The translations under genes were made by a program, and so were the position numbers. A stretch of DNA of 26,453 bases from a virus. Where the stretch lies: the IMG/VR virus record IMGVR_UViG_3300010389_000107, positions 1-26,453 of that record; one strand, 5' to 3'. Under the pieces are notes generated by a model, which saw only the letters and a program-made list of their open reading frames with translations, searched no databases and had not been told where the DNA came from. Position 1 is the stretch's first letter, and each line of letters opens with the position of its first letter. Shown here one piece after another: positions 1,077 through 24,060 of this stretch.

Positions 1077-1814
1077 TTATCCCTCTTTTTTCTTCTTTAT
1101 AAAACCTAATTTAAAATTGTTTGGCTGTTGTCCTGGATAAGTAAATAGGTTAGTTTTTCCATCATTATACCATTTTCTTCCAATACAAGAATTACCAGGT
1201 TTATTTTCTTTTAATTCCATTTTTATATCTTTATAGCCATATTCTTGTAAATCATTTTTTACTATTCTATGACGAATAGCGCTCTCAGTCAAGTTAGTAT
1301 TCGCTCTTATTTCTTCTGCCAATTCTTTTTTCATGGAAAAAACTTTTTTTGTTCCATCTTCATATTCTACAAATACTTTTTTTGCTGTATGATTTTTTTG
1401 AGGTGCTTCTCTCATGGGGTTATTTTCTAACATTCTTCTTCTTGCTTTTGCTCTCGAATTATTTGTTTTTCCAGGGTTGCTTGCAGGATCTTGTTTTGCT
1501 TGCCATTTCTTAAAATCTGAAAAATTGTTTTTTATTGTTTCAACCATTCTTGAAGTCAATTTTCTATTTTCGTTAGGTGCTCTTAACATGCATAAAAAAC
1601 CATAATGTATTTTTGAAATATTAGGATATATTTTTGTTAAAATCCAATGTGCTATAAAATGTTCTCTAACTGTTAGTTTTATCAAATTATCTTTTTCGTC
1701 AGTTCCGCCCAAGCATCTTGGGATTATATGATGTATTTCGTATCCCCTTTCTTTTATAAGCTCTCTTGTCTTTCTTGTTTCTATTAATTTATCATAAAGT
1801 TTTTGATAGTTCAT
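1077..1814 (-). CDS. HNH homing endonuclease inserted between nrdA and nrdB
   Basis: A freestanding HNH endonuclease of 245 aa. The HNH core covers residues 25-60: YEIHHIIPR with His28 and His29, then GGTDEKDNL with Asn43, then REHFIAHW with His52 and His56. This is the beta-beta-alpha-metal fold that nicks or cuts DNA. Residues about 100-135 are basic and Asn/Arg-rich (NPGK, NNPMRE), like NUMOD3-type DNA-binding repeats. Residues about 145-195 resemble a helix-turn-helix element, and the tail KWYNDGKTNLF...PG...LGF is a module often seen at the C-terminus of phage homing endonucleases. It has its own AAAGGAG ribosome site and a candidate late promoter upstream (1832-1844). Its position, splitting two ribonucleotide reductase genes, parallels mobE in T4-like phages. 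It is a selfish element rather than part of dNTP synthesis; its cut site is probably in the neighbouring nrd sequence of phages lacking it (inference). Confidence 0.92.
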   Translation of the reverse strand: MNYQKLYDKLIETRKTRELIKERGYEIHHIIPRCLGGTDEKDNLIKLTVREHFIAHWILTKIYPNISKIHYGFLCMLRAPNENRKLTSRMVETIKNNFSDFKKWQAKQDPASNPGKTNNSRAKARRRMLENNPMREAPQKNHTAKKVFVEYEDGTKKVFSMKKELAEEIRANTNLTESAIRHRIVKNDLQEYGYKDIKMELKENKPGNSCIGRKWYNDGKTNLFTYPGQQPNNFKLGFIKKKKEG

Positions 1815-8744: not shown

Positions 8745-9554
8745 TCATACAGAATTCTGAACTATGTGAGTTGTGAACTCTATAAAACCATACTTATCTG
8801 TTTGATTTGATTCGAATATAGCAAATGTTTTTGCTGTCTCTTCTTCGTTATTTAAAATTTTATTTTTTATATTTTGTAATAATTTACCATCTTTTTTTAT
8901 ATCTTCTTTGGAAAAAGAAAAGTAAAATCTTTGCTTGGTTATATGATTCATGTTAAAAAATGGTTTATTACCATTTTCCATATCATATAAACCAATAGTG
9001 CAAATTCTGTCTATCTCATTTATATCTTCTTTTGTTTCGAATAAAGGTTTTGAATTTTTAAAATACATGATGCTATGAAAAGTATAGCAAAATAATTCAT
9101 TTAATTTTTGATAATACTGGTCTAGTGGTATATCATCTAATAGGGATTCAAGATTGGAATTATTAACTAAATAAACTTTCTCAAGTAGACCTGAACGAGC
9201 ATATTCTTGTAAGACATTGGTAACAATCTTTTGTTGTAGTTTTCCTGTAGAGGATAGCAAACTTTCATCTGTATTAAAACAGACAACACTTATTTTACTA
9301 CTCTTAATTTTTTCTAATACTCTAAGGGTTAAGCCAGATATATTACCTGAAGCAGAGAGAAAAACAAAAACATCCTCAGAAGTGCTGGATAATAGCTTGC
9401 CAAGACTGGGACAATTTTTTTCATATTCTTCTGGATTCTTTTGTTTTTTAACATTTATTCCTTCGTCTATCTCTAGAACTTTATATTGAGAATTTTTCCC
9501 TAATTCTCTTACCAGGCCACATCCAGTATTACCAATACCAATTAAACTAATCAT
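8745..9554 (-). CDS. Divergent tubulin/FtsZ-like protein
   Basis: A protein of 269 aa whose layout follows the FtsZ/tubulin GTPase fold. Residues 2-15 (ISLIGIGNTGCGLV) form a strand and glycine-rich turn like the first nucleotide loop. Residues 61-92 (strand, SASGNISG, helix, strand ISVVCFN) fall where the GGGTGSG loop and next helix and strand lie, but the loop is degraded. Residues 100-165 (long helix, then VYLVNNSNLESLL, then a helix) closely follow the FtsZ segment that reads VIPNDxLL. DINEIDRICTIG (177-188) sits at the T7-loop position, and a C-terminal domain with RFYFSFSKEDI follows. The gene overlaps the MazG-like gene and precedes ssb. Phage tubulins such as PhuZ position DNA or form filaments. 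With its weak G-loop this one may bind nucleotide poorly. The assignment comes from pattern only; a Rossmann-like protein of another family is the main alternative. Confidence 0.5.
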   Translation of the reverse strand: MISLIGIGNTGCGLVRELGKNSQYKVLEIDEGINVKKQKNPEEYEKNCPSLGKLLSSTSEDVFVFLSASGNISGLTLRVLEKIKSSKISVVCFNTDESLLSSTGKLQQKIVTNVLQEYARSGLLEKVYLVNNSNLESLLDDIPLDQYYQKLNELFCYTFHSIMYFKNSKPLFETKEDINEIDRICTIGLYDMENGNKPFFNMNHITKQRFYFSFSKEDIKKDGKLLQNIKNKILNNEEETAKTFAIFESNQTDKYGFIEFTTHIVQNSV

Positions 9555-9855
9555 CTTGCTCCTTTATGAAATATCTGCCCCAATAAAGACCCAGTTTCTC
9601 CTGTCTTTCTTCTATTACATCGCTTAACTTACTTGTTCCTAAAGATACTTGAAGCCAATCTATTAATTCAACTAACTCTGCTAAATTTTGAATTGATTTA
9701 GTCATTTCTAATAAATCAATTTCGCTTCTTATTTTAGAAATGATTGCCTGAAAGAAATCTTCATCTGAAGAAAGAGAAACTATATCTACTTCTTTTTCTT
9801 TCACCTTATCAAAGGCATTCATTAATTCTTTTGCCACATTATCTCTTATAAGCAT
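9547..9855 (-). CDS. MazG-like / all-alpha NTP pyrophosphatase
   Basis: A small all-helical protein of 102 aa. It opens MLIRDNVAKELM, like the L-V-R-D-K-I-P start of house-cleaning NTP pyrophosphatases and phosphoribosyl-ATP pyrophosphohydrolase relatives. It continues with a helix carrying SKIRSEIDLLEM (residues 41-52), then NLAELVELIDWLQ (57-69, the place of the family's EELADVLEVI helix), and ends with EERQEKLGLYWGRYFI (83-98), matching the family's K-x3-RGGFxxRI tail. The acidic residues on the first two helices would hold Mg2+. Enzymes of this family hydrolyse non-canonical or excess NTPs. It overlaps the polymerase stop (TAATG) and the tubulin-like start, so all three are translated together; sanitising the nucleotide pool for the adjacent polymerase is a fair inference. 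The substrate is unknown. Confidence 0.65.
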   Translation of the reverse strand: MLIRDNVAKELMNAFDKVKEKEVDIVSLSSDEDFFQAIISKIRSEIDLLEMTKSIQNLAELVELIDWLQVSLGTSKLSDVIEERQEKLGLYWGRYFIKEQDD

Positions 9856-11030
9856 TATAATTTCCTTAATTGTCCGTAGTCTTTACCTGCTGAAATATTA
9901 ACAGGAAATGTTCCTAATTTGGTTTTAGCAAAAGTAGAAAGTATAATATTAATTAGTTTTTTATCTTCTTTTGCAAGATCAATAACAACACTATCATGAA
10001 CTAAAAAGCTAATAAAACTCTTTTTATCTTTTAGTATTTTATTTATTTTTGATACTTGATCTAAAAATAATTCAGTAGTACTACTTTGTATTAAGTAATT
10101 TAAACTATGAAATTGATCTGATTCTATTTTTCTTCCATATAAACTAGTGATTATACGACCATCGTATTTTTGTTCCATCAATTTGTTAAGCCCAAAATAA
10201 TTTTCGTATTTTTTTGTATCAATTTTCTTGGAACCATACAACCAAGAAAATATTTCTTTCTTTGCTTCTTCTCTTGTAATTCCCAATCTCTCTGCATTCC
10301 ATTCATGGATATCGTTTTTTGGTTGCTCCTCTCCTGATAAGCCAAGTAGGACTCTCACTTCTGCTGCGTTGTAATCCAATTCAACAAAAAGATCGTTTGT
10401 TGGTTTGATTATTGAACGGTATTTACTATCCAAATTAAGAATAGGAAATGTCTTAGGATTAGTTGTAAGCCTTCCTGTCTTGGACCCAAACAAGTTGTAG
10501 CTTACATTGTGTTTGGCTTCTCCTAATCTATTTAAGAGAGTTCTAGCCCTATTATCGTGCCTGTTTTCGTTTAAGATCGACAAGTCAATATTGAGCTTTT
10601 TATTAGAGATAGAATTTAAGATTTTTTCTGTCTCTAATAACAAATTATAATTGACTGGTTTTTCGTTGTTTTCCAATACCCAATCAATTATCCTGGTTTT
10701 GATCTCGCACAACTCCAAAAGAAATTGTTCTGGAACGAGATCGAAAAAACAATTTTCATCCAAACTGACTTTTGCTGTGACAAACGATTTATGATAAGAA
10801 GATAATTTTTTTGTGTATTTCTCCCATTCCTCATTTAAATGTGGGGGGCAAACTTCACTCATGGTTTTACCGCCAACATACAATGAGGCATAGACCACAT
10901 TTCTATCACTCAAATACTCGGCATACTTCCAAGTTTTCGTTAGGTTTTCTGGTAGTTTGTCGTAATGGAGCTTGCCTTGGTGATAAATTCCTTTACACCA
11001 ATCTTTGTTATCAAGTGTTACAAAAGTCAA
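9855..11030 (-). CDS. Family A (Pol I-like) DNA polymerase, compact form without exonuclease domains
   Basis: The phage DNA polymerase, 391 aa, made almost only of the palm-fingers-thumb unit. SKTGRLTT (183-190) is the conserved TGRLSS block. Motif A is ELDYNAAEVRVLLG (217-230, Asp219 and Glu224). Motif B is REEAKKEIFSWLYG (253-266, Arg253, Lys257 or 258, Phe261, Tyr265). NYLIQSSTTELF (311-322) and motif C LVHDSVV (343-349) follow. Motif C reads His-Asp-Ser where most relatives have His-Asp-Glu; the metal-binding Asp346 is kept. The first 100 residues are not recognisable and there is no room for a 3'-5' proofreading or 5' nuclease domain. The start codon is TTG at 11030, five bases after GAGG; no in-frame ATG exists before residue 57. 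It begins eight bases after the end of the virion operon and heads the replication block. Confidence 0.92.
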   Translation of the reverse strand: MTFVTLDNKDWCKGIYHQGKLHYDKLPENLTKTWKYAEYLSDRNVVYASLYVGGKTMSEVCPPHLNEEWEKYTKKLSSYHKSFVTAKVSLDENCFFDLVPEQFLLELCEIKTRIIDWVLENNEKPVNYNLLLETEKILNSISNKKLNIDLSILNENRHDNRARTLLNRLGEAKHNVSYNLFGSKTGRLTTNPKTFPILNLDSKYRSIIKPTNDLFVELDYNAAEVRVLLGLSGEEQPKNDIHEWNAERLGITREEAKKEIFSWLYGSKKIDTKKYENYFGLNKLMEQKYDGRIITSLYGRKIESDQFHSLNYLIQSSTTELFLDQVSKINKILKDKKSFISFLVHDSVVIDLAKEDKKLINIILSTFAKTKLGTFPVNISAGKDYGQLRKL

Positions 11031-16009: not shown

Positions 16010-18712
16010 TTAAAGAGTATTTTTCAATTCTGTTGTTCGTGGAGGCACTCTTATCTCTTCTCGTTCTTTTTGTTCCATATAATAAGCCGCACCATTATAA
16101 ATAAGAGTTCCTAATTCTGCTCCGTCTATATTAACTGGACCTTCCAGACGAAGCTGTATTGTTTGAGGTTGAGCGTTTGCTATTGGCATAGATCTCTCTA
16201 CAGTATTTGTTTCTTTTTCTACTCTAATTGTTTCTATAATTTCTCTTTGTGTTGTAGAAATTTCAGTCATTATTTCTTTTATCTCACTACCAAATTCCAA
16301 AGGAGTCCCTGTAGCTGCACTAGTAGCAACAGATAATCCCGCTGTTATGTCAGCAGAAACATTTGCTAAATTACTTAATTCTTTTAGATATTCTAGTTTG
16401 TTGTCTGGCAGATTTTTTAACTCTTCTCCTATCTTGCGAAGTCCACTAGCAAAAGAGTCAAGTTTAGAAGCGTTTAATTCAATAGAACTTAACTGTCCCA
16501 ATAAGGAAGCTTTTGTTTTTAATAATTCATTTTCTTGCTTTGTTCGTTCAGCAACAGCAGTGGCCACGAGAGCTATGGCGCCGCCAATTAATAAAATACC
16601 AGCCCCAAAAGCCATTAAGCCTAAGCCTGCTGCAGCCAATGCTTTGGAAGCAAATGCTAAGACAGCTGCGGCAATTACTATTCCTGCCGTCAATGCTACA
16701 ATAGAATCTCTTGCGTATTGTGCATTTTTGCCAGCTTTGGCAAAAGCTTCCACAAGAGGAACGAAACCCAATGACGCTATTGCCATCGCAGCCCCTACAG
16801 CCAAAATAGCAACAGCTAATACTCCTAATGTTTGAGCAAAACTTAAAGTAGAAGCACTGGCTGCAGCTGGTGGAACTGGCAGAGGTTTCCCAGTAGCTAA
16901 TGCTGCTTGTTGTGCTTTTATTGCTTCTATATTTCTCCATCTTGCTGCTGTATCTGCATCCAATGTTCTAGAAGCCAGTGTTGACTGGGTAACTTCTTTT
17001 CCTCTTGCTATTGCTAGTAAAGTAGAAAAAGTTGTGTAAGCTGTTCTTAATTTTGCTACTGCAACAACAGCAAATATAAAGAAAGTAGCTAATTGAAATA
17101 CTCCACTAGCAAGAATTCCAATAATATTATTTGAACTTGAAGCTGCTTCAAACAAATAAGCGAATCCTTCAATTATTGTTATTAAAAATTGTACTAATGG
17201 ACTAGACATTATTTTTTGAAATGCTATTTCTAGTCTTTTGAAGGCATCAGCAGATTTGGCTGCGAGTTCTGCGAGTTCCTGTTGTGTTTTCGCATTATGT
17301 TCCATTTCAGAAGTTGCTTCTCCGAGACTCATATTAAAAAGTCTTTGAGCCTCTGTCACTTCCATGCCAAATATAGAAGCAATATGTCTTTGCATTGCTG
17401 GTCCTAATTCATCGAAACTTTTACCCGAAGCATCCATAGCGGTCTTTAGTTGTTCAAAGACTTCTATAGGATTTGTCATCGCAGCATTTAACAAGCCCAT
17501 AGAACTAACAAGGTTTTTTCCTAATACAGCATTTAGTTCTCCTGCCATTTTTGAGGCGCCTTCAAATGTAGTTAATTGTTCTGTAACTTGCACAAGTTTA
17601 CCTATATCAATTGCTAAGTTTTTGGCCGCTAAACTTAAACTTTCAAAAGCTCTCTGGTATCCTTCTTTACCGAAAGCTGCTAGTTTTGTTCCAACTGCTC
17701 CTATGTTTTTATCCAATGTTGTCATTGGAATATTTGCTCTTTTAGAAAAGCTTTCTAAGCTTCTTAAGGCTTCCTGACCTTGTTGATTTGTAAATCCAAG
17801 ACCTTTTGTCAGAACTTCAAACATTTGAATTTGATTAGATACAGTTATTCCTAATCTTTCTAATGTATTAACCACTTTAGTTAATTCGATTTGCTCTTGT
17901 TCTGTTAAATCTATAAATTGAGACATTCCTGTGGTAAGTTCTTTAACGGTATTTCCAACATCGGTCATAGAAACGCCACCAAGGGCCTCTGAGGCTTCTA
18001 AAGCAACAACGGATAGATCTGTTGTCCCTGTTTGTAATTTATTTAATTCTGCTCTCATTTGAGATAAAGCTTTAACATTAGCCATAAACGCAGCATATAG
18101 TCTTGTTGCAGCGCCTGTAACCATTTCGACACTTTTTGCTCTTAAAATAATTAAAGCTTGTTCTTTAGTTATATTTTCTTCTAAGTCTTTTACTATTTCT
18201 GCTTGTTTTAATCTCATTCCTTCTAAGAGATTAAATTGTTGTCCCATTGGACCAAGCAAATCACTTGAAGCCTTTAGTCTTTGAAGTTCACTACCAGTAA
18301 AAAGTTTACTATTGCTTAATAGTCGTTGAGACATGCCCAGCTGTTCTCTTATACTTTTTTCTATATCTTGTTTAATCGAAAGTTCTCTAGCAGACAATTC
18401 CTCTACGGTAGAATTCCATAAAGCTATCAATTCCATAGAATCAACTTGCTCTTCGTTTAAATCATTGAGCTGAGAGGCATAGGTTCCAAGAGCCTCCATT
18501 CTTTCTTTTATCTGATCAAGACTGCCTGTCCAACCTTCCCATGGCGTACTTGTTTGTTTTATTTGTTTATAGAGAGTCTCCATTAGTTTTATAAGTTCAT
18601 CAGTTGCATAACCTGCCTTTTCTGCTTGCTTGACAATTTCAGAAAGAGCAGCTTGCTTTTCTTCCAAGCTAGATGTATCTAATGGGTCCTTTGGATCTGT
18701 TGGTTCTGCCAT
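16010..18712 (-). CDS. Tail tape measure protein
   Basis: The tape measure sets tail length, fills the tube and helps DNA cross the cell envelope. At 900 aa it is the longest mainly helical protein in the window. Residues 1-480 are rich in Glu, Lys, Gln and Ala with heptad-like patterning, consistent with coiled coils. Three hydrophobic regions follow, near residues 505-555 (LITIIEGFAYLF and FFIFAVVAVAKL), 624-660 (LGVLAVAILAVGAAMAI) and 672-720 (GIVIAAAVLAFASKAL, LLIGGAIALVATAV). A further helical segment and a polar end close the protein. The order tube, frameshifted chaperone, tape measure is the canonical one for long-tailed phages. It has its own candidate late promoter (18738-18750) and a GAGG ribosome site. 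If tail length scales as in other phages (about 0.15 nm per residue), 900 residues would imply a tail near 130 nm (inference). Confidence 0.93.
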   Translation of the reverse strand: MAEPTDPKDPLDTSSLEEKQAALSEIVKQAEKAGYATDELIKLMETLYKQIKQTSTPWEGWTGSLDQIKERMEALGTYASQLNDLNEEQVDSMELIALWNSTVEELSARELSIKQDIEKSIREQLGMSQRLLSNSKLFTGSELQRLKASSDLLGPMGQQFNLLEGMRLKQAEIVKDLEENITKEQALIILRAKSVEMVTGAATRLYAAFMANVKALSQMRAELNKLQTGTTDLSVVALEASEALGGVSMTDVGNTVKELTTGMSQFIDLTEQEQIELTKVVNTLERLGITVSNQIQMFEVLTKGLGFTNQQGQEALRSLESFSKRANIPMTTLDKNIGAVGTKLAAFGKEGYQRAFESLSLAAKNLAIDIGKLVQVTEQLTTFEGASKMAGELNAVLGKNLVSSMGLLNAAMTNPIEVFEQLKTAMDASGKSFDELGPAMQRHIASIFGMEVTEAQRLFNMSLGEATSEMEHNAKTQQELAELAAKSADAFKRLEIAFQKIMSSPLVQFLITIIEGFAYLFEAASSSNNIIGILASGVFQLATFFIFAVVAVAKLRTAYTTFSTLLAIARGKEVTQSTLASRTLDADTAARWRNIEAIKAQQAALATGKPLPVPPAAASASTLSFAQTLGVLAVAILAVGAAMAIASLGFVPLVEAFAKAGKNAQYARDSIVALTAGIVIAAAVLAFASKALAAAGLGLMAFGAGILLIGGAIALVATAVAERTKQENELLKTKASLLGQLSSIELNASKLDSFASGLRKIGEELKNLPDNKLEYLKELSNLANVSADITAGLSVATSAATGTPLEFGSEIKEIMTEISTTQREIIETIRVEKETNTVERSMPIANAQPQTIQLRLEGPVNIDGAELGTLIYNGAAYYMEQKEREEIRVPPRTTELKNTL

Positions 18713-18756: not shown

Positions 18757-18782
18757 AAAAAAAGCAGAATTTCTCCTGCTTT
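18757..18782 (-). terminator. Intrinsic terminator between the tail chaperone and the tape measure
   Basis: On the minus strand the 9-bp stem AAAGCAGGA / TTCTGCTTT (one G-T wobble) carries a GAAA tetraloop and is followed by more T residues (18757-18760) and a T-rich tail. It begins within the stop codon of the frameshift extension ORF. Both the GNRA loop and the T-run suit an efficient terminator, probably a partial one that lowers tape measure message relative to tube and sheath. Confidence 0.85.
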
Positions 18783-18981
18783 ATCTCTTTCTTGATGCTT
18801 CTTTGATTTGTTCTGATTCATCTTTTTTTTGTTTCAAAAGTCTTTTTACAAACCACTCTCTTAGCTTAACAGGAAGATTGTAAGATTCTATAAGACTCCA
18901 TCCTCCATAGTATTTTAAAAAGAAAAATTGTTCGTAAATTCCTTCTGAATATTCATCATTTAGGCCAAAAAAACTCTGCGG
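18781..18981 (-). CDS. Frameshift extension of the tail assembly chaperone (GT-like T domain, no start codon)
   Basis: A 66-codon open frame that lies +1 relative to the gp26-like gene and overlaps its 3' end. It has no ATG or GTG at all, and its only TTG is near the C-terminus, so it cannot start on its own. Its product reads GLNDEYSEGIYEQFFFLKYY, then a GGW turn, and then LPVKLREWFVKRLLKQ, which is followed by a charged tail (KKDESEQIKEASRKR). The LP-x3-R-x-WFV-x-RL-x2-Q helix is typical of tail assembly chaperone extensions. The frames meet at a run of seven T in the mRNA sense (18967-18973, read TTT TTT TGG in the zero frame), where a +1 or -2 slip yields one protein of about 336 residues. 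The position between tube and tape measure is that of lambda G/GT. Read as the second half of the gene at 18956-19792. Confidence 0.8.
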   Translation of the reverse strand, partial: PQSFFGLNDEYSEGIYEQFFFLKYYGGWSLIESYNLPVKLREWFVKRLLKQKKDESEQIKEASRKR

Positions 18982-19792
18982 TCAGCGGTACCTCCAATCC
19001 TTCTTCGTGGCCACAATTTTCACAAGAGAAATCTTGCTCCATATCTACTTCTGGAGTTAAATCTTTGATTACATTTCTTAAAGCTCTTGCGTCACTTGCT
19101 ATCATATTATCACTTACTTGTTTTATTGATTGAGGATCATACATACCGTTAACTGAAACAATACAAGTTTTCAATTGTCCTGTAGATACATTGTCTATTT
19201 CTTTTTTGCTGATTACTTGTTTAGCTATTTTAGATTCATCAGCAGAAGTCATCAAACGAAACTCTACACTTACTCCTAATCGTGGAAGAGTAAAAAGAAA
19301 AGTTCCGTGTTGTGTTTGTGTTACAGAAGAAGGGACTTCCTTTTCTTCTATTTCTTTCGACATTATGTTTGATAAATCGAATTCTTGTTTTTGTTTTGCT
19401 TCACAAGCTGGACATGTTACTTGAACGCTATAATCTGCTCCATAAGCAGATATCCTTGAAGCTAAGAGAACAGCATTCTTATCACCTACTAATAAATCGT
19501 CCACTTTAAGACCTGGATCTATTAATAAGCTTTGAAGCATTTTGTCTATTGCCACCCCCTTTCTTAATAGAGATTTGTTTGTAAGAATATCTTCTTCTTT
19601 TGCTGTCATGAATTTTATTTCTATTTCTTCTTTTCCGTGAAGAGGGTGTCCTGGTTGATAGAATTTACCTTTTGATGGCAATTCTACTATTTCTGTTGGA
19701 GTGACAAAATTTAATTTATTATCACCTGATTGCATAGCAGAAGTCTGATCCTCCTGTATAGGAGGTCCAAATCTTTCTTCGTTGTTTCTCAT
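18956..19792 (-). CDS. Tail assembly chaperone / baseplate hub assembly protein, T4 gp26-like, with zinc ribbon
   Basis: A 278-aa protein of the family annotated as gp26 (baseplate hub subunit) in T4-like phages. Family blocks: VELPSKGKFY (36-45), HPLHGKEEIEIKFMTAKEED (49-68) and ILTNKSLLRKGVAIDKMLQ (69-87). Two Cys pairs, Cys127-x2-Cys130 and Cys257-x2-Cys260, would form a zinc ribbon; the second is close to the C-terminus. The stop follows AEFFWPK, immediately after the seven-T run used by the proposed frameshift, so this would be the short, abundant form and the extended protein the rare one. In lambda the short form (G) and the long form (GT) together bind the tape measure and recruit tube protein; I infer the same here. 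The gene starts 15 bases after the second tube-like gene and is co-transcribed with it. Confidence 0.85.
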   Translation of the reverse strand: MRNNEERFGPPIQEDQTSAMQSGDNKLNFVTPTEIVELPSKGKFYQPGHPLHGKEEIEIKFMTAKEEDILTNKSLLRKGVAIDKMLQSLLIDPGLKVDDLLVGDKNAVLLASRISAYGADYSVQVTCPACEAKQKQEFDLSNIMSKEIEEKEVPSSVTQTQHGTFLFTLPRLGVSVEFRLMTSADESKIAKQVISKKEIDNVSTGQLKTCIVSVNGMYDPQSIKQVSDNMIASDARALRNVIKDLTPEVDMEQDFSCENCGHEEGLEVPLTAEFFWPK

Positions 19793-19807: not shown

Positions 19808-20578
19808 TTATGAGCTTGAAGGCCTTCTTGTTGGCGATGTTCCAGGAAGAGCTGAACCTTTAGTTGTAGATTGTTGTCTACTACTTGCATCTTCTCGTGA
19901 TTCACCATGGGTAATTGAACCATGTATTCCTGATAGTTTAGTTATATAAGAGCCTTGGAGCGGGTTAGTAGGTTCGGCAGAACTACTGATTTGTTTAACA
20001 TTTGGCTTATCAGGTGCAGCATTTAATATTTTTTCTGATTCAGGAGATACAAGATATTCATAATTATCGTAAACAATTGTCATAGTATATGTAGCTAATC
20101 CAGTATCAGTATAATTTAGAGGACTATATTTAACATCAGAGATCCAACCGTTATAAAGAACATATTGTTCTATCACATTTCCTAATTCATTTAACATGGA
20201 AATTTCTATATTTTTTGTTTTATCTGTTAGGGTTCTGCTTGTAGTATTTCCTATTTCTGAATATTTACTAAAATTCAAGCCTGCCAATTTATAGTAATAA
20301 TGAATCCAATTAGAAACAGTATTTTGCTCATCGTCTATACAAACTATCTCTATTGGGCGTAATTCTAGAGGACCCTTTTTATATTTTGGAGTTCCTAAAT
20401 CGCTTATTGATTCAACCGTAAAACCAAAGTTAGGTTTTTGAGCGCTTATGACATATTGAGGAGGAATATGAGTTAATAAATTATCAAAAAGCACCTTCCA
20501 GCGGAAAGTGCGTTTTGGTTCAAATCTTCTCTCTTCCCAGAAGAACCCTGTGTTAGGAGTTTTATGATTCTCCGTCAT
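19808..20578 (-). CDS. Second tail-tube-like protein with a disordered C-terminal extension
   Basis: A 256-aa paralogue of the tube gene just upstream. Both proteins share a start with FWEERRFEPKRTFRWKV here and FWNKPETLDPKRAFRWKV in the tube protein, and both have the central LRPIEIVCIDD or DPVTVTLVDS strand and a matching late block (EQYVLYNGWISDVKYSPLNY versus EEWTLHNAWIKSVKPSELSY). Residues 1-190 therefore carry the tube fold. The last 65 residues are rich in Ser, Thr, Pro and Gly and look unfolded (SSRQQSTTKGSALPG). It could be a special ring at the tube end (terminator or initiator side) or a minor tube component. It follows the tube by 14 bases and precedes the gp26-like chaperone, with no promoter motif of its own. 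Confidence 0.8.
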   Translation of the reverse strand: MTENHKTPNTGFFWEERRFEPKRTFRWKVLFDNLLTHIPPQYVISAQKPNFGFTVESISDLGTPKYKKGPLELRPIEIVCIDDEQNTVSNWIHYYYKLAGLNFSKYSEIGNTTSRTLTDKTKNIEISMLNELGNVIEQYVLYNGWISDVKYSPLNYTDTGLATYTMTIVYDNYEYLVSPESEKILNAAPDKPNVKQISSSAEPTNPLQGSYITKLSGIHGSITHGESREDASSRQQSTTKGSALPGTSPTRRPSSS

Positions 20579-20592
20579 TCAATATCCTTATT

Positions 20593-21171
20593 TTAAGCAT
20601 CAGATGGAGCAGTTGCACCAGCAGCTTGTGCCCAATCAAATCTTAATTCAATATCATAAGTGGAAAGATCCTCTGTATCATAAGATAATTCTGATGGTTT
20701 AACAGACTTAATCCAAGCATTGTGTAAAGTCCACTCTTCTATTGTTAGACCATCTACATCTAATTGCTGAATCAAAACTTTGCCAGAATTTCCAGTAGCA
20801 CCTGAGAGGCGTCCTTTGCTAATAGTTTTCATCGAACCAGCATTTAAAGGACCCTGTGCTTCTGGAATAGCGCCTGTTTGAATTGTTTCATAATTTCCAG
20901 CGTTGATGGCAGAAACAACCTTGCTCATCAATGCACCATCACGACTATCTACCAAAGTAACTGTTACAGGATCCCATTTTACATGACCAGGAAAATAATA
21001 GCTTTTATTTAAAAACTTATGTTCTGCTTCTTCAACAGTAAATTGAGGTTTTGTTACTTTTTTAGCCAAAAATGCTACATCAGTTCCTACAGCAGTACCA
21101 TCTAGTAGTGTTACTTTCCATCTAAAAGCTCTTTTTGGGTCTAATGTTTCTGGCTTATTCCAAAATGTCAT
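20593..21171 (-). CDS. Major tail tube protein, T4 gp19-like
   Basis: The 192-aa subunit of the inner tail tube, close to the 163 aa of T4 gp19 with some extra loop. Recognisable blocks are PKRAFRWKVTL (12-22), a strand-rich middle with KWDPVTVTLVDS near 63-75, and the final EEWTLHNAWIKSVKPSELSY followed by YDIELRFDWA. These give the beta-barrel with a long hairpin that stacks hexameric rings. It sits between the sheath and the second tube-like gene, the standard order for contractile tails, and has its own candidate late promoter (21202-21214) and an AGGAG ribosome site, as expected for a protein needed in over a hundred copies. Confidence 0.9.
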   Translation of the reverse strand: MTFWNKPETLDPKRAFRWKVTLLDGTAVGTDVAFLAKKVTKPQFTVEEAEHKFLNKSYYFPGHVKWDPVTVTLVDSRDGALMSKVVSAINAGNYETIQTGAIPEAQGPLNAGSMKTISKGRLSGATGNSGKVLIQQLDVDGLTIEEWTLHNAWIKSVKPSELSYDTEDLSTYDIELRFDWAQAAGATAPSDA

Positions 21172-21225: not shown

Positions 21226-24060
21226 TTATGCATCGTCAAATGAAGCACCGGTATTGGTGATTACAAAGTCGATGCCGATAAATTCAATGGCGTATACTGG
21301 CTTGATAAATAATTTAGCATACATCATGTTTCTATCGATTTCTTCTGGTGTTGTAGTGGTTTCATCCAATACTACACGATAATCACTGATGCCAAGTCTG
21401 TTCTTGACACTTTCCAACAATTCAGTTGTTGGGGTGGTGAATCTACGCCAAGTCTCTTGAACATTTGGATCAAAGAGGACACCAGCGGCGATTCGACTGA
21501 TTTCTTTCTTCAAGAAAATAACCAATCTTCTTACGTTGATTCTGTCAAGAGCAGATGGGAAAGCTTGTAGGGTCTTTTGACCAAAGATTACAATACCTTC
21601 ACTTGGGAAAGAAGCAATTGGGTTAATACCAACATCGTATAGAGCATCACGTTGCTTGGAAGTAACTTTATCTTTTACTCCTACAACATTTAGACCAGAA
21701 GAGCCTTCGGACAATCCACCACGATTAAAGCCTGCTGGAGCAAACCATACTTCACTGGTTTCTTGGCTGGAAGCCATTGTGCCGAAAGCAGCAACAGAAG
21801 GTGGAACCCATAGTTTAGAGCCGCTTCTTCCATCTCTTATTTGCACCCATGGATAGTAAGCACAAGCATAGCTGCTATTTAAATCTCTATCTTTAATTGC
21901 TGAGACAACTGCTGAAACTCTACCCATTCTTTCTTTTTCGGTTTCTGTGTTTTCTGTATCTGGCACATAACCACTTTCAACATCAATGATAGCAAGACAA
22001 TCAGCTCTTTCGTCACAGGTTTTAATCATTTGTTCTGTTAATATTTTCTCTGTAATACCTGGAACTACCATAATATTCATATCAATAACTTCTGGATCTT
22101 TAACAGAGGTAATTGCTCTCTTGATTGAATAATAAGCGTAATTGTTATCTTCAGTTGCGCCATCCAATAAGGTATTTCTAAACGGCTCTCTTTCAGTGAT
22201 ATCAAGACCATCAAAACCACCAAATAGAGGCATTGTGAACTTATTGAATCCAGCATCTAGAGCAGCGCCAAAGTTATCAGTAGCAGATTTTGAAATACCA
22301 GCCTTTCTGTTTCCAGCAACATAAACGCCGCCATTAGCACTTGAACTTACATCGTCTAGGGTAAATGCTACACTGTTTTCTAAATATGTTCCATCAGCAT
22401 CATAAGAATTAAAAGCTGAAGGTTTAACTTTCAAAATATCTCTTAGTGATTCATTGAATGGCTGTCCTACATCTAATCCAAAGAAAGCATCTGCTGGATC
22501 TAGGAAGCCTGCATCAGAAGCACTTACTACTAAAGGTAAGCTTGGGAAGGAAATGCTTGCCGATAGAGCAAGGGTAGTTCCTGGAATAATTTTATCACTT
22601 ACAGCTTGATTTGGAGTGGCATTGAGAGCATTAACAATTGAGCTAGCTGTTTGTGAATCGCCCGCTGAATCACTGATACCTTCAAAAGTAAATGTCTTGA
22701 ATCTTGGTGGACCGATGAATCCTGCTGGTAATACTCCTTCTGGTAAACTCTTTGCTGTTGGGTGCATTTCTACACGAATAATTTTTGAATTATTTTCAAA
22801 ATCGCCAACTTCGATATATCTTCCTTCACCGTCAACAGCTTCAGACCATTCAACTCTTCTGTCGCCAATACGAGCAGCAATATAGTTTGGAGAAGCAGGG
22901 TCTAAATTCAAATTAGAGAAAACTTCAACGAACTCTGGTGATTTGTCGCTATCGTTTATATTGCGAATACCAACAGAGAAGGTGCCGTATTTCTGATATT
23001 TATTAGAAGGTGCTTTGATATCGAAAATAGAAATCTTGTAATTTAATTGTTCAAATTCGCTACCTTCACCTTCACCTGCTACGATGCGGAAAAGTTTTCT
23101 TGAATCAGTTGCAGGATCAAAGCTGCTAGTATCAGCACTTAAATGTTGAGAAATCACCCAACCAGACTTAGCTGGCTGTGCAGCTTGTCTGAATTTGCCA
23201 GCATAATTGCTACCTGAAGCTAGAGGTGTGATAAAAGCATAGCAGCCTCCTGCAGATTTGGCGCCTGCTGGTAATACTTTATCTAGAGAATCTTCAAAAG
23301 TTTCTCCCAACCAATAAGTTTGTAGGCCGCTATCAGTAGTATAAATTGAATCATTTACAAGAGTAGGGTTTGTATTAAATGATTTTCTAATAAATTTATC
23401 CGAGGATTTGTTAAAGTTAAATGTTACTAGTTCTTTTTGAGCATTACTTTTATCGACAATTCTTGCTTTGAATTCATAATCGGTACCCTTTGTTTCTACA
23501 AAAACATTAACGCCGGCGCCGCTTGCAACGGCAGTTCCGTCATCTCTATCGCCAATTAATTCAACAACACCTTCGTCTACATAAAATACAGCAGCTAATG
23601 TTCCTGTGGTTGGAGTCGCATCTTGTGTTGAACTTGAAGCTACGAGGAATAAACCATAAGCGCCGCCATTTAAAGTTCTGGTATCGTCTAAAGTCCCGCT
23701 TGTTTGCCAGCCTGCTGCACCGGCAGCAGTAGGAGAGCCTGGTTCAACGCCACCTAATCTTAGAAATGTTAAGGGTGAAGAACTAGCTAACCAAGCTTGA
23801 GCAGCATAAGCGCCATAAGTTGGGCCGGTATCATTTCCGTTTCTCCAAATATCACTTGAACCTAATCCTGCACTTGGTTCACCGAATTTTTGTACGAACT
23901 CTTCATAAGTATCTACTGTTACAGGAACCATAGTTGGACCTTTGATAGAACGACCAACAACTAAAGGACCAACTTGTCCTGGTAGTGATGGTAATCTTGA
24001 TCTATCGATCTCGTTAATTTTTACTCCTGGTGATACAAAACGGAATTTTTTTGCTGCCAT
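21226..24060 (-). CDS. Tail sheath protein, T4 gp18-like, enlarged
   Basis: The contractile sheath subunit. The first 60 residues are diagnostic: FVSPGVKINEIDRSRLPS, then GPLVVGRSIKGPTMVPV and VDTYEEFVQKFGEP. The last 200 residues are too, with WVPPSVAAFG, the block NRGGL, INPIASFPSEGIVIFGQKTL, the segment NVRRLVIFLKKEI and a final strand IEFIGIDFVIT. These N- and C-terminal arms join neighbouring subunits. At 944 aa the protein is nearly 300 residues longer than T4 gp18 (659). The extra length lies in the middle (about 120-640), which is Ser, Gly and Asn-rich and beta-like, so it likely forms added domains on the outer surface of the tail. A candidate late promoter and a GAGGAG ribosome site precede it. 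Confidence 0.96.
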   Translation of the reverse strand: MAAKKFRFVSPGVKINEIDRSRLPSLPGQVGPLVVGRSIKGPTMVPVTVDTYEEFVQKFGEPSAGLGSSDIWRNGNDTGPTYGAYAAQAWLASSSPLTFLRLGGVEPGSPTAAGAAGWQTSGTLDDTRTLNGGAYGLFLVASSSTQDATPTTGTLAAVFYVDEGVVELIGDRDDGTAVASGAGVNVFVETKGTDYEFKARIVDKSNAQKELVTFNFNKSSDKFIRKSFNTNPTLVNDSIYTTDSGLQTYWLGETFEDSLDKVLPAGAKSAGGCYAFITPLASGSNYAGKFRQAAQPAKSGWVISQHLSADTSSFDPATDSRKLFRIVAGEGEGSEFEQLNYKISIFDIKAPSNKYQKYGTFSVGIRNINDSDKSPEFVEVFSNLNLDPASPNYIAARIGDRRVEWSEAVDGEGRYIEVGDFENNSKIIRVEMHPTAKSLPEGVLPAGFIGPPRFKTFTFEGISDSAGDSQTASSIVNALNATPNQAVSDKIIPGTTLALSASISFPSLPLVVSASDAGFLDPADAFFGLDVGQPFNESLRDILKVKPSAFNSYDADGTYLENSVAFTLDDVSSSANGGVYVAGNRKAGISKSATDNFGAALDAGFNKFTMPLFGGFDGLDITEREPFRNTLLDGATEDNNYAYYSIKRAITSVKDPEVIDMNIMVVPGITEKILTEQMIKTCDERADCLAIIDVESGYVPDTENTETEKERMGRVSAVVSAIKDRDLNSSYACAYYPWVQIRDGRSGSKLWVPPSVAAFGTMASSQETSEVWFAPAGFNRGGLSEGSSGLNVVGVKDKVTSKQRDALYDVGINPIASFPSEGIVIFGQKTLQAFPSALDRINVRRLVIFLKKEISRIAAGVLFDPNVQETWRRFTTPTTELLESVKNRLGISDYRVVLDETTTTPEEIDRNMMYAKLFIKPVYAIEFIGIDFVITNTGASFDDA

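What the first reader, a model, noticed from the sequence alone, without database searches (positions are those of the whole stretch)
18781..19792. Probable programmed frameshift (+1 or -2) fusing a T4 gp26-like protein to a start-less chaperone tail
Seen: the gp26-like frame ends right after TTT TTT TGG CCT AAA TGA (18956-18973, minus strand). A second frame, open for 66 codons through this point, has no ATG or GTG and ends in a helix with the motif LP-x3-R-x-WFV-x-RL-x2-Q. Going from the first frame to the second needs +1 or -2 at the seven-T run. Known: long-tailed phages place a frameshifted G/GT-type gene between tube and tape measure, mostly by -1 (lambda), with -2 in Mu. Here the host gene is a zinc-ribbon gp26-like protein in a T4-like tail, and -1 is excluded by the reading frames. 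This suggests that gp26-type proteins are the counterpart of lambda G, and that this phage uses a rare shift direction.
Basis: partly seen in the sequence, partly recalled or inferred. Interest (0 to 1): 0.85.

Follow-up and report, generated by a model that had tools for sequence, protein, structure and literature searches.

The report
+1 frameshift in phage tail chaperone
A phage tail-building gene appears to make a short and a long protein from one message by having some ribosomes skip one base forward; this two-product trick is known in phages, but here a large uncultured group of T4-related phages uses the forward shift where its cyanophage cousins shift backward and T4 itself keeps two separate genes.

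Summary
The 278-aa gp26-like gene (19792-18956, minus strand) ends just after TTT TTT TGG, and a 66-codon frame without ATG or GTG crosses that point in +1. All of 147 non-redundant relatives, plus 15 loci from bacterial assemblies, keep this +1 relation. The tail evolves as protein only in the +1 frame (pN/pS 0.21), and its second residue (Leu) is invariant although the overlapping 0-frame residue varies. Sites are TTT TTT TGG, TTT CTT TGG, TTC TTT TGG or TTT CTA TGG. These fit a +1 slip of the P-site tRNA at UUU/CUU and argue against -2 and against transcriptional slippage. The tail is homologous to the -1-frame tail of cyanophages (E 1e-7), which is homologous to the C-terminus of T4 gp51 (E 4e-13). 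The closest solved folds to the body are three tail assembly chaperones. So this is a gp26-type G/GT chaperone pair. The gp26/gp51 chaperone role in T4-like phages is already published (Vladimirov 2022), as are poly-T -1 signals. New as far as the held literature shows: a widespread clade using +1, and a conserved GGAGG 17-26 nt upstream. Expression has not been tested.

The parts
18956..19792 (-). gp26-like tail assembly chaperone, short (unshifted) product, 278 aa, 31 kDa
   Evidence: ORF; PF12322 T4_baseplate 3.9e-17, phrog_150 baseplate hub 7.2e-20; AF2 pLDDT 87.7, top three VIA matches are tail assembly chaperones
18965..18973 (-). shift site TTT TTT TGG (P-site Phe codon UUU followed by U, slow UGG in the A site)
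   Evidence: site class conserved in 147 of 147 non-redundant relatives: TTT TTT TGG 108, TTT CTT TGG 29, TTC TTT TGG 6, TTT CTA TGG 3, TTT CTT TAC 1
18781..18966 (-). +1-frame extension (61 codons after the shift, then TAA), T-like / gp51-tail-like domain
   Evidence: purifying selection in this frame only; homologous to the cyanophage gp51 tail, itself homologous to the T4 gp51 C-terminus; AF2 helical, pLDDT 84.6
18991..18995 (-). Shine-Dalgarno-like GGAGG 17 nt upstream of the T run, candidate stimulator
   Evidence: GGAGG within 45 nt upstream in 88/99 and 35/48 relatives, against 21 and 13 expected from synonymous resampling and 1-2% of other windows; positions
16010..18712 (-). tape measure protein (900 aa), next gene downstream
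   Evidence: phrog_167 tail length tape measure 2.9e-6
19808..20578 (-). tail tube protein (second tube-like paralogue), next gene upstream
   Evidence: phrog_4542 tail tube 4.7e-21, Phage_T4_gp19 1.8e-6
20593..21171 (-). tail tube protein
   Evidence: phrog_4542 tail tube 6.3e-23
21226..24060 (-). tail sheath protein
   Evidence: phrog_23 tail sheath 1.1e-65

Best explanation
[quoted passage not shown] Most ribosomes stop at TGA 18956 and make the short chaperone (TAC-N, gp26/lambda-G-like). A fraction slip +1 while peptidyl-tRNA-Phe sits on UUU followed by U, with the UGG codon waiting in the A site, and continue into the +1 frame, adding a 61-residue helical domain. The 38-kDa product is the long chaperone (TAC-NC; like lambda GT and, in body plus tail, T4 gp51). 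The short form is expected to coat the tape measure protein, and the long form to recruit tail tube subunits to it. Shown by sequence: the ORFs, the conserved +1 relation, selection on the +1 frame through the junction, homology of body and tail, gene order, chaperone-like predicted fold. Inferred: that frameshifting occurs, its exact codon and efficiency, that GGAGG stimulates it, and the binding roles.
For: +1 frame open past the gp26 stop in 147/147 non-redundant relatives and 15/15 from bacterial assemblies. Selection only in the +1 frame: pN/pS 0.21 vs 1.37 and 2.06, 61% of substitutions at third positions. +1 residue Leu2 invariant 147/147 while the overlapping 0-frame residue is P/F/S/V/T, so the +1 reading is selected within six bases of the site, upstream of any start codon. 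80/147 have no ATG/GTG/TTG in the first 15 extension codons. Site variants all allow a +1 slip at UUU or CUU. Body in PF12322; VIA top three of 990 aligned PDB chains are 3fgx, 3klu and 2ob9, all tail assembly chaperones per PMC9603447. Tail homologous to cyanophage gp51 (E 1.1e-7), which is homologous to the T4 gp51 tail (E 3.7e-13). Gene sits between tail tube and tape measure.
Against: No expression data. No conserved RNA structure. GGAGG lies 17-26 nt upstream, not at the short spacing known for bacterial prfB (own knowledge). Direct profile comparison of the extension with the T4 gp51 tail is not significant (E 0.37); the link rests on the cyanophage bridge. VIA Z of 5-6.2 is only moderate.
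Confidence: 0.87

Rival explanations
1. The same two products are made by -2 ribosomal frameshifting, as proposed for phage Mu, adding one more residue (FFFGL instead of FFGL).
For: -2 and +1 reach the same frame; a 7-T run lets tRNA-Phe re-pair at -2, and CUU could re-pair at UUC. 108/147 sites are 7-T runs.
Against: In TTC TTT TGG (6 non-redundant sequences) a -2 slip from the second Phe codon would land on UCU, a middle-base mismatch, while +1 re-pairs perfectly; TTT CTA TGG also re-pairs perfectly only at +1 (UUU to UUC).
Confidence: 0.06
2. Transcriptional slippage at the T run (one U dropped) makes a second mRNA with the two frames fused.
For: Seven T in 108/147 sequences.
Against: 39/147 have runs of only 3 or 4 T at the site with the same frame relation.
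Confidence: 0.03
3. The 3' ORF is a separate small gene, translated by re-initiation after the gp26 stop.
For: Some relatives have an ATG in the +1 frame soon after the stop, and Mel-JY01 and S-PM2 records annotate it as its own CDS.
Against: No ATG or GTG in the window ORF; 80/147 lack any of the three start codons in the first 15 extension codons; Leu2, upstream of any start, is invariant in the +1 frame while the 0-frame residue varies.
Confidence: 0.03
4. Sequencing or assembly error in the T run of an in-frame gene.
For: Homopolymer run; environmental contig.
Against: Same frame relation in about 200 contigs, in cultured phages immuto and Mel-JY01, and in relatives without a long run.
Confidence: 0.005

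Closest known systems
T4 gp26 and gp51 (PF12322; TAC-N and TAC-NC of T4-like phages, Vladimirov et al. 2022)
   Same: Body homologous to gp26 and to the gp51 N-terminal 200 aa; extension homologous to the gp51 C-terminal tail through cyanophage sequences.
   Different: T4 has two separate paralogous genes and no frameshift; here one gene with a +1 shift.
Cyanophage (S-PM2, Kyanoviridae) gp26/gp51 pair
   Same: One gp26 gene followed by a short gp51 frame before the tape-measure-like gene; homologous tail.
   Different: The tail lies in the -1 frame after the canonical U UUU UUC heptamer in 58 of 59 distinct sequences (this set includes the PBECO4-like ones).
Lambda G/GT tail assembly chaperones
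   Same: Position between tube and tape measure, short protein plus start-less shifted extension, near the end of the first ORF.
   Different: Lambda shifts -1; no sequence similarity was found.
Flavobacterium phage immuto, Microcystis phage Mel-JY01
   Same: Same +1 relation (TTT CTT TGG; TTT TTT TGG), 38-40% identical body over about 90%.
   Different: No frameshift appears in their annotated CDS; the tail is a separate 'hypothetical protein' or mostly unannotated.
Vandenendeviridae/Andersonviridae TAC (PMC12846349)
   Same: Proposed poly-T programmed frameshift in the chaperone gene.
   Different: -1 at GTTTTT.

Membership tests
Frameshifted tail assembly chaperone pair (G/GT type) | gene lies between tail tube and tape measure genes | tested here: met
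   the same in L044, L045, L048, L049, L052
Frameshifted tail assembly chaperone pair (G/GT type) | second ORF without start codon, entered near the end of the first at a conserved slippery site | tested here: met
Frameshifted tail assembly chaperone pair (G/GT type) | tail assembly chaperone fold | tested here: inconclusive
   top three VIA matches are tail assembly chaperones, but Z is only 5.0-6.2
Frameshifted tail assembly chaperone pair (G/GT type) | two products in a fixed ratio that bind tape measure and tube proteins | not testable with these tools
   needs expression and binding experiments
T4 gp26/gp51 family (PF12322) | profile match above the curated cut-off | tested here: met
   63.1 bits against a cut-off of 24.5
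T4 gp26/gp51 family (PF12322) | gp51-type C-terminal tail | tested here: met
   extension to cyanophage tail E 1.1e-7; cyanophage tail to T4 gp51 tail E 3.7e-13; the direct comparison alone is not significant
T4 gp26/gp51 family (PF12322) | short and long forms encoded by two separate genes, as in T4 | tested here: inconclusive
   only one homologue seen among the window genes scanned, but the window is a fragment
Canonical -1 slippery-heptamer frameshift (lambda, cyanophage type) | second frame is -1 relative to the first | tested here: not met
   -1 frame reads TTG GCC TAA in the window; closed soon after the stop in most relatives
Mu-type -2 frameshift | re-pairing possible at -2 at all conserved sites | tested here: not met
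   TTC TTT TGG and TTT CTA TGG sites

The most novel reading that the evidence does not exclude
Homologous gp26-type chaperone genes with a homologous tail are decoded by -1 in one set of lineages (cyanophages, jumbo phages), by +1 in another (this clade), and by two duplicated genes in T4; the +1 clade uses a previously undescribed signal made of YUU UGG plus a GGAGG placed 17-26 nt upstream.
Probability: 0.4. Interest if true: 0.65.

Novelty: new variant of a known kind. Interest (0 to 1): 0.52.

Why it matters
It shows that T4-related phages outside the studied groups do appear to make their tail chaperones by frameshifting, with the direction switched between lineages while the protein architecture stays. 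Together with T4's duplicated genes this gives one protein family with three solutions to one problem, where the evolution of shift direction can be tested. [quoted passage not shown]

Tried and rejected
Direct profile match of the extension to T4 gp51: not significant (E 0.37); resolved by a cyanophage bridge. Fold search of the extension alone: nothing significant. RNA structure around the site: none conserved. A mixed alignment of all gp26 types was too diverse for a scan; LR756508 and SagM-GXN1 queries gave zero and one relative. The tree groups the +1 rows on one side of a branch with weak support (71/15), so the number of direction switches is open. An hmmsearch shuffle test failed on an option clash and was not repeated. 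Vladimirov et al. 2022 is not held, so whether it mentions +1 members could not be checked. LR756511 (L053) did not give a clear junction.

Full report
Observation. The gp26-like ORF 19792-18956 (minus strand) and the 66-codon +1 frame that crosses its stop are exactly as described. The -1 frame closes at TTG GCC TAA. The fusion is 336 aa and 38.0 kDa.

Conservation. A scan of IMG/VR with the window protein gave 42 relatives; every one that could be read (41) shows the gp26 stop a few codons after F-F-W and an open +1 frame reaching about 157-217 nt past that stop. Two more scans brought in an immuto-like clade and further window-like loci. After removing near-copies 147 sequences remain, and all keep the relation. 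Fifteen loci from bacterial and archaeal assemblies do too. Cultured phages immuto and Mel-JY01 have it, with the tail unannotated or called a separate hypothetical protein.

Is the tail a protein? In the +1 frame pooled pN/pS is 0.21, against 1.37 and 2.06 for the other frames; stops are 0 per 100 codons against 6.1 and 10.6; 61% of changes fall in third positions. The first residues after the shift are G-L; the Leu is invariant in 147 of 147 although the overlapping 0-frame residue is P, F, S, V or T. The +1 reading is therefore under selection within six bases of the site, where no start codon could serve it.

Which shift? Site codons are TTT TTT TGG (108), TTT CTT TGG (29), TTC TTT TGG (6), TTT CTA TGG (3) and TTT CTT TAC (1). 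All allow a +1 slip of the P-site tRNA from UUU to UUU/UUC or from CUU to UUU. A -2 slip fails at TTC TTT TGG by a middle-base mismatch. Transcriptional slippage is unlikely where the run is only 3 or 4 T (39 of 147). The A-site codon UGG is rare in these genes (0.07% of codons). More remote named phages (SagM-GXN1, LIS04, SP-15, BRock, LR756508) also have the small frame in +1, at sites holding UUU followed by U or C.

Signals. GGAGG occurs within 45 nt upstream in 88 of 99 window-like and 35 of 48 immuto-like sequences, against about 21 and 13 expected when codons are resampled for the same protein, and in 1-2% of other windows of the same genes. It sits mostly 17, 23 or 25-26 nt before the run, so it appears at different codons. 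This is farther than the known prfB stimulator (own knowledge), and its role is unproven. GAC just before the run and CCG, GCG and GAG upstream are also preferred over their synonyms. No RNA structure is conserved.

What the proteins are. The body belongs to PF12322/phrog_150. T4 gp26 and gp51 both belong to PF12322 too, gp51 being a gp26-like body plus a tail of about 48 residues. In cyanophage S-PM2 the 57-aa gp51 lies in the -1 frame directly after gp26; 59 of 59 distinct S-PM2- or PBECO4-like sequences have an open -1 frame and 58 carry U UUU UUC. Jumbo phages Atu_ph07, MIJ3, XacN1 and PBECO4 are also -1. The cyanophage tail matches the T4 gp51 tail (probability 97.9, E 3.7e-13) and the window-clade +1 tail over 57 columns (probability 94.3, E 1.1e-7). 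The three tails are thus one domain reached by -1, by +1, or by an in-frame duplicate gene. The predicted body (pLDDT 87.7) has as its top three VIA matches in the PDB 3fgx, 3klu and 2ob9, described as tail assembly chaperones in PMC9603447. Z is moderate (5-6.2), but nothing else scores above 3.6.

Known or new. gp26/gp51 as short and long tail assembly chaperones of T4-like phages was published by Vladimirov, Gautam and Davidson in 2022; that paper is not held, but PMC10885494 describes its duplicated-gene result and PMC12846349 cites it for poly-T -1 signals. Sullivan et al. 2010 (PMC3037559) noted the short cyanophage gp51. The Atkins review (PMC5009743) states that -1, -2 and +1 all occur in tail genes and that T4 is an exception. 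No held paper was found that reports +1 decoding in gp26-type genes or its spread across this uncultured clade. I therefore rate it a new variant of a known kind.

Limits. No expression evidence; efficiency unknown; the literature check is incomplete; the tree does not settle how often the direction changed.

Noticed in passing
20593-21171 and 19808-20578 (minus): Two tandem tail-tube-like genes (both phrog_4542) lie between sheath and chaperone gene.
   Followed up: no
1077-1814 (minus): HNH homing endonuclease (phrog_655, 5e-40) between what look like the two ribonucleotide reductase subunit genes.
   Followed up: no
9855-11030 (minus): Short DNA polymerase I-like protein (391 aa) starting at TTG, matching only the later part of the polymerase profile.
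   Followed up: no
8745-9554 (minus): 269-aa protein whose start resembles tubulin/FtsZ-like sequences by eye (GIGNTGCGLVRELG, FLSASGNISG); no PHROG match at E 0.01.
   Followed up: no
18991-18995 (minus) and homologous positions in L002-L219: GGAGG 17-26 nt upstream of the shift site is strongly over-represented but at a spacing unlike known +1 stimulators.
   Followed up: partly
L226: A gp26 homologue with the same +1 site lies in a 2.8-Mb chromosome record of a WOR-3 bacterium (metagenome assembly): a provirus or an assembly mix-up.
   Followed up: no
L058:10472-11364 and L242-L324: Cyanophage gp51 CDS begin at a non-conserved ATG; the -1 frame is open upstream of it to the slippery site, so database gp51 entries are probably truncated long chaperones.
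   Followed up: partly
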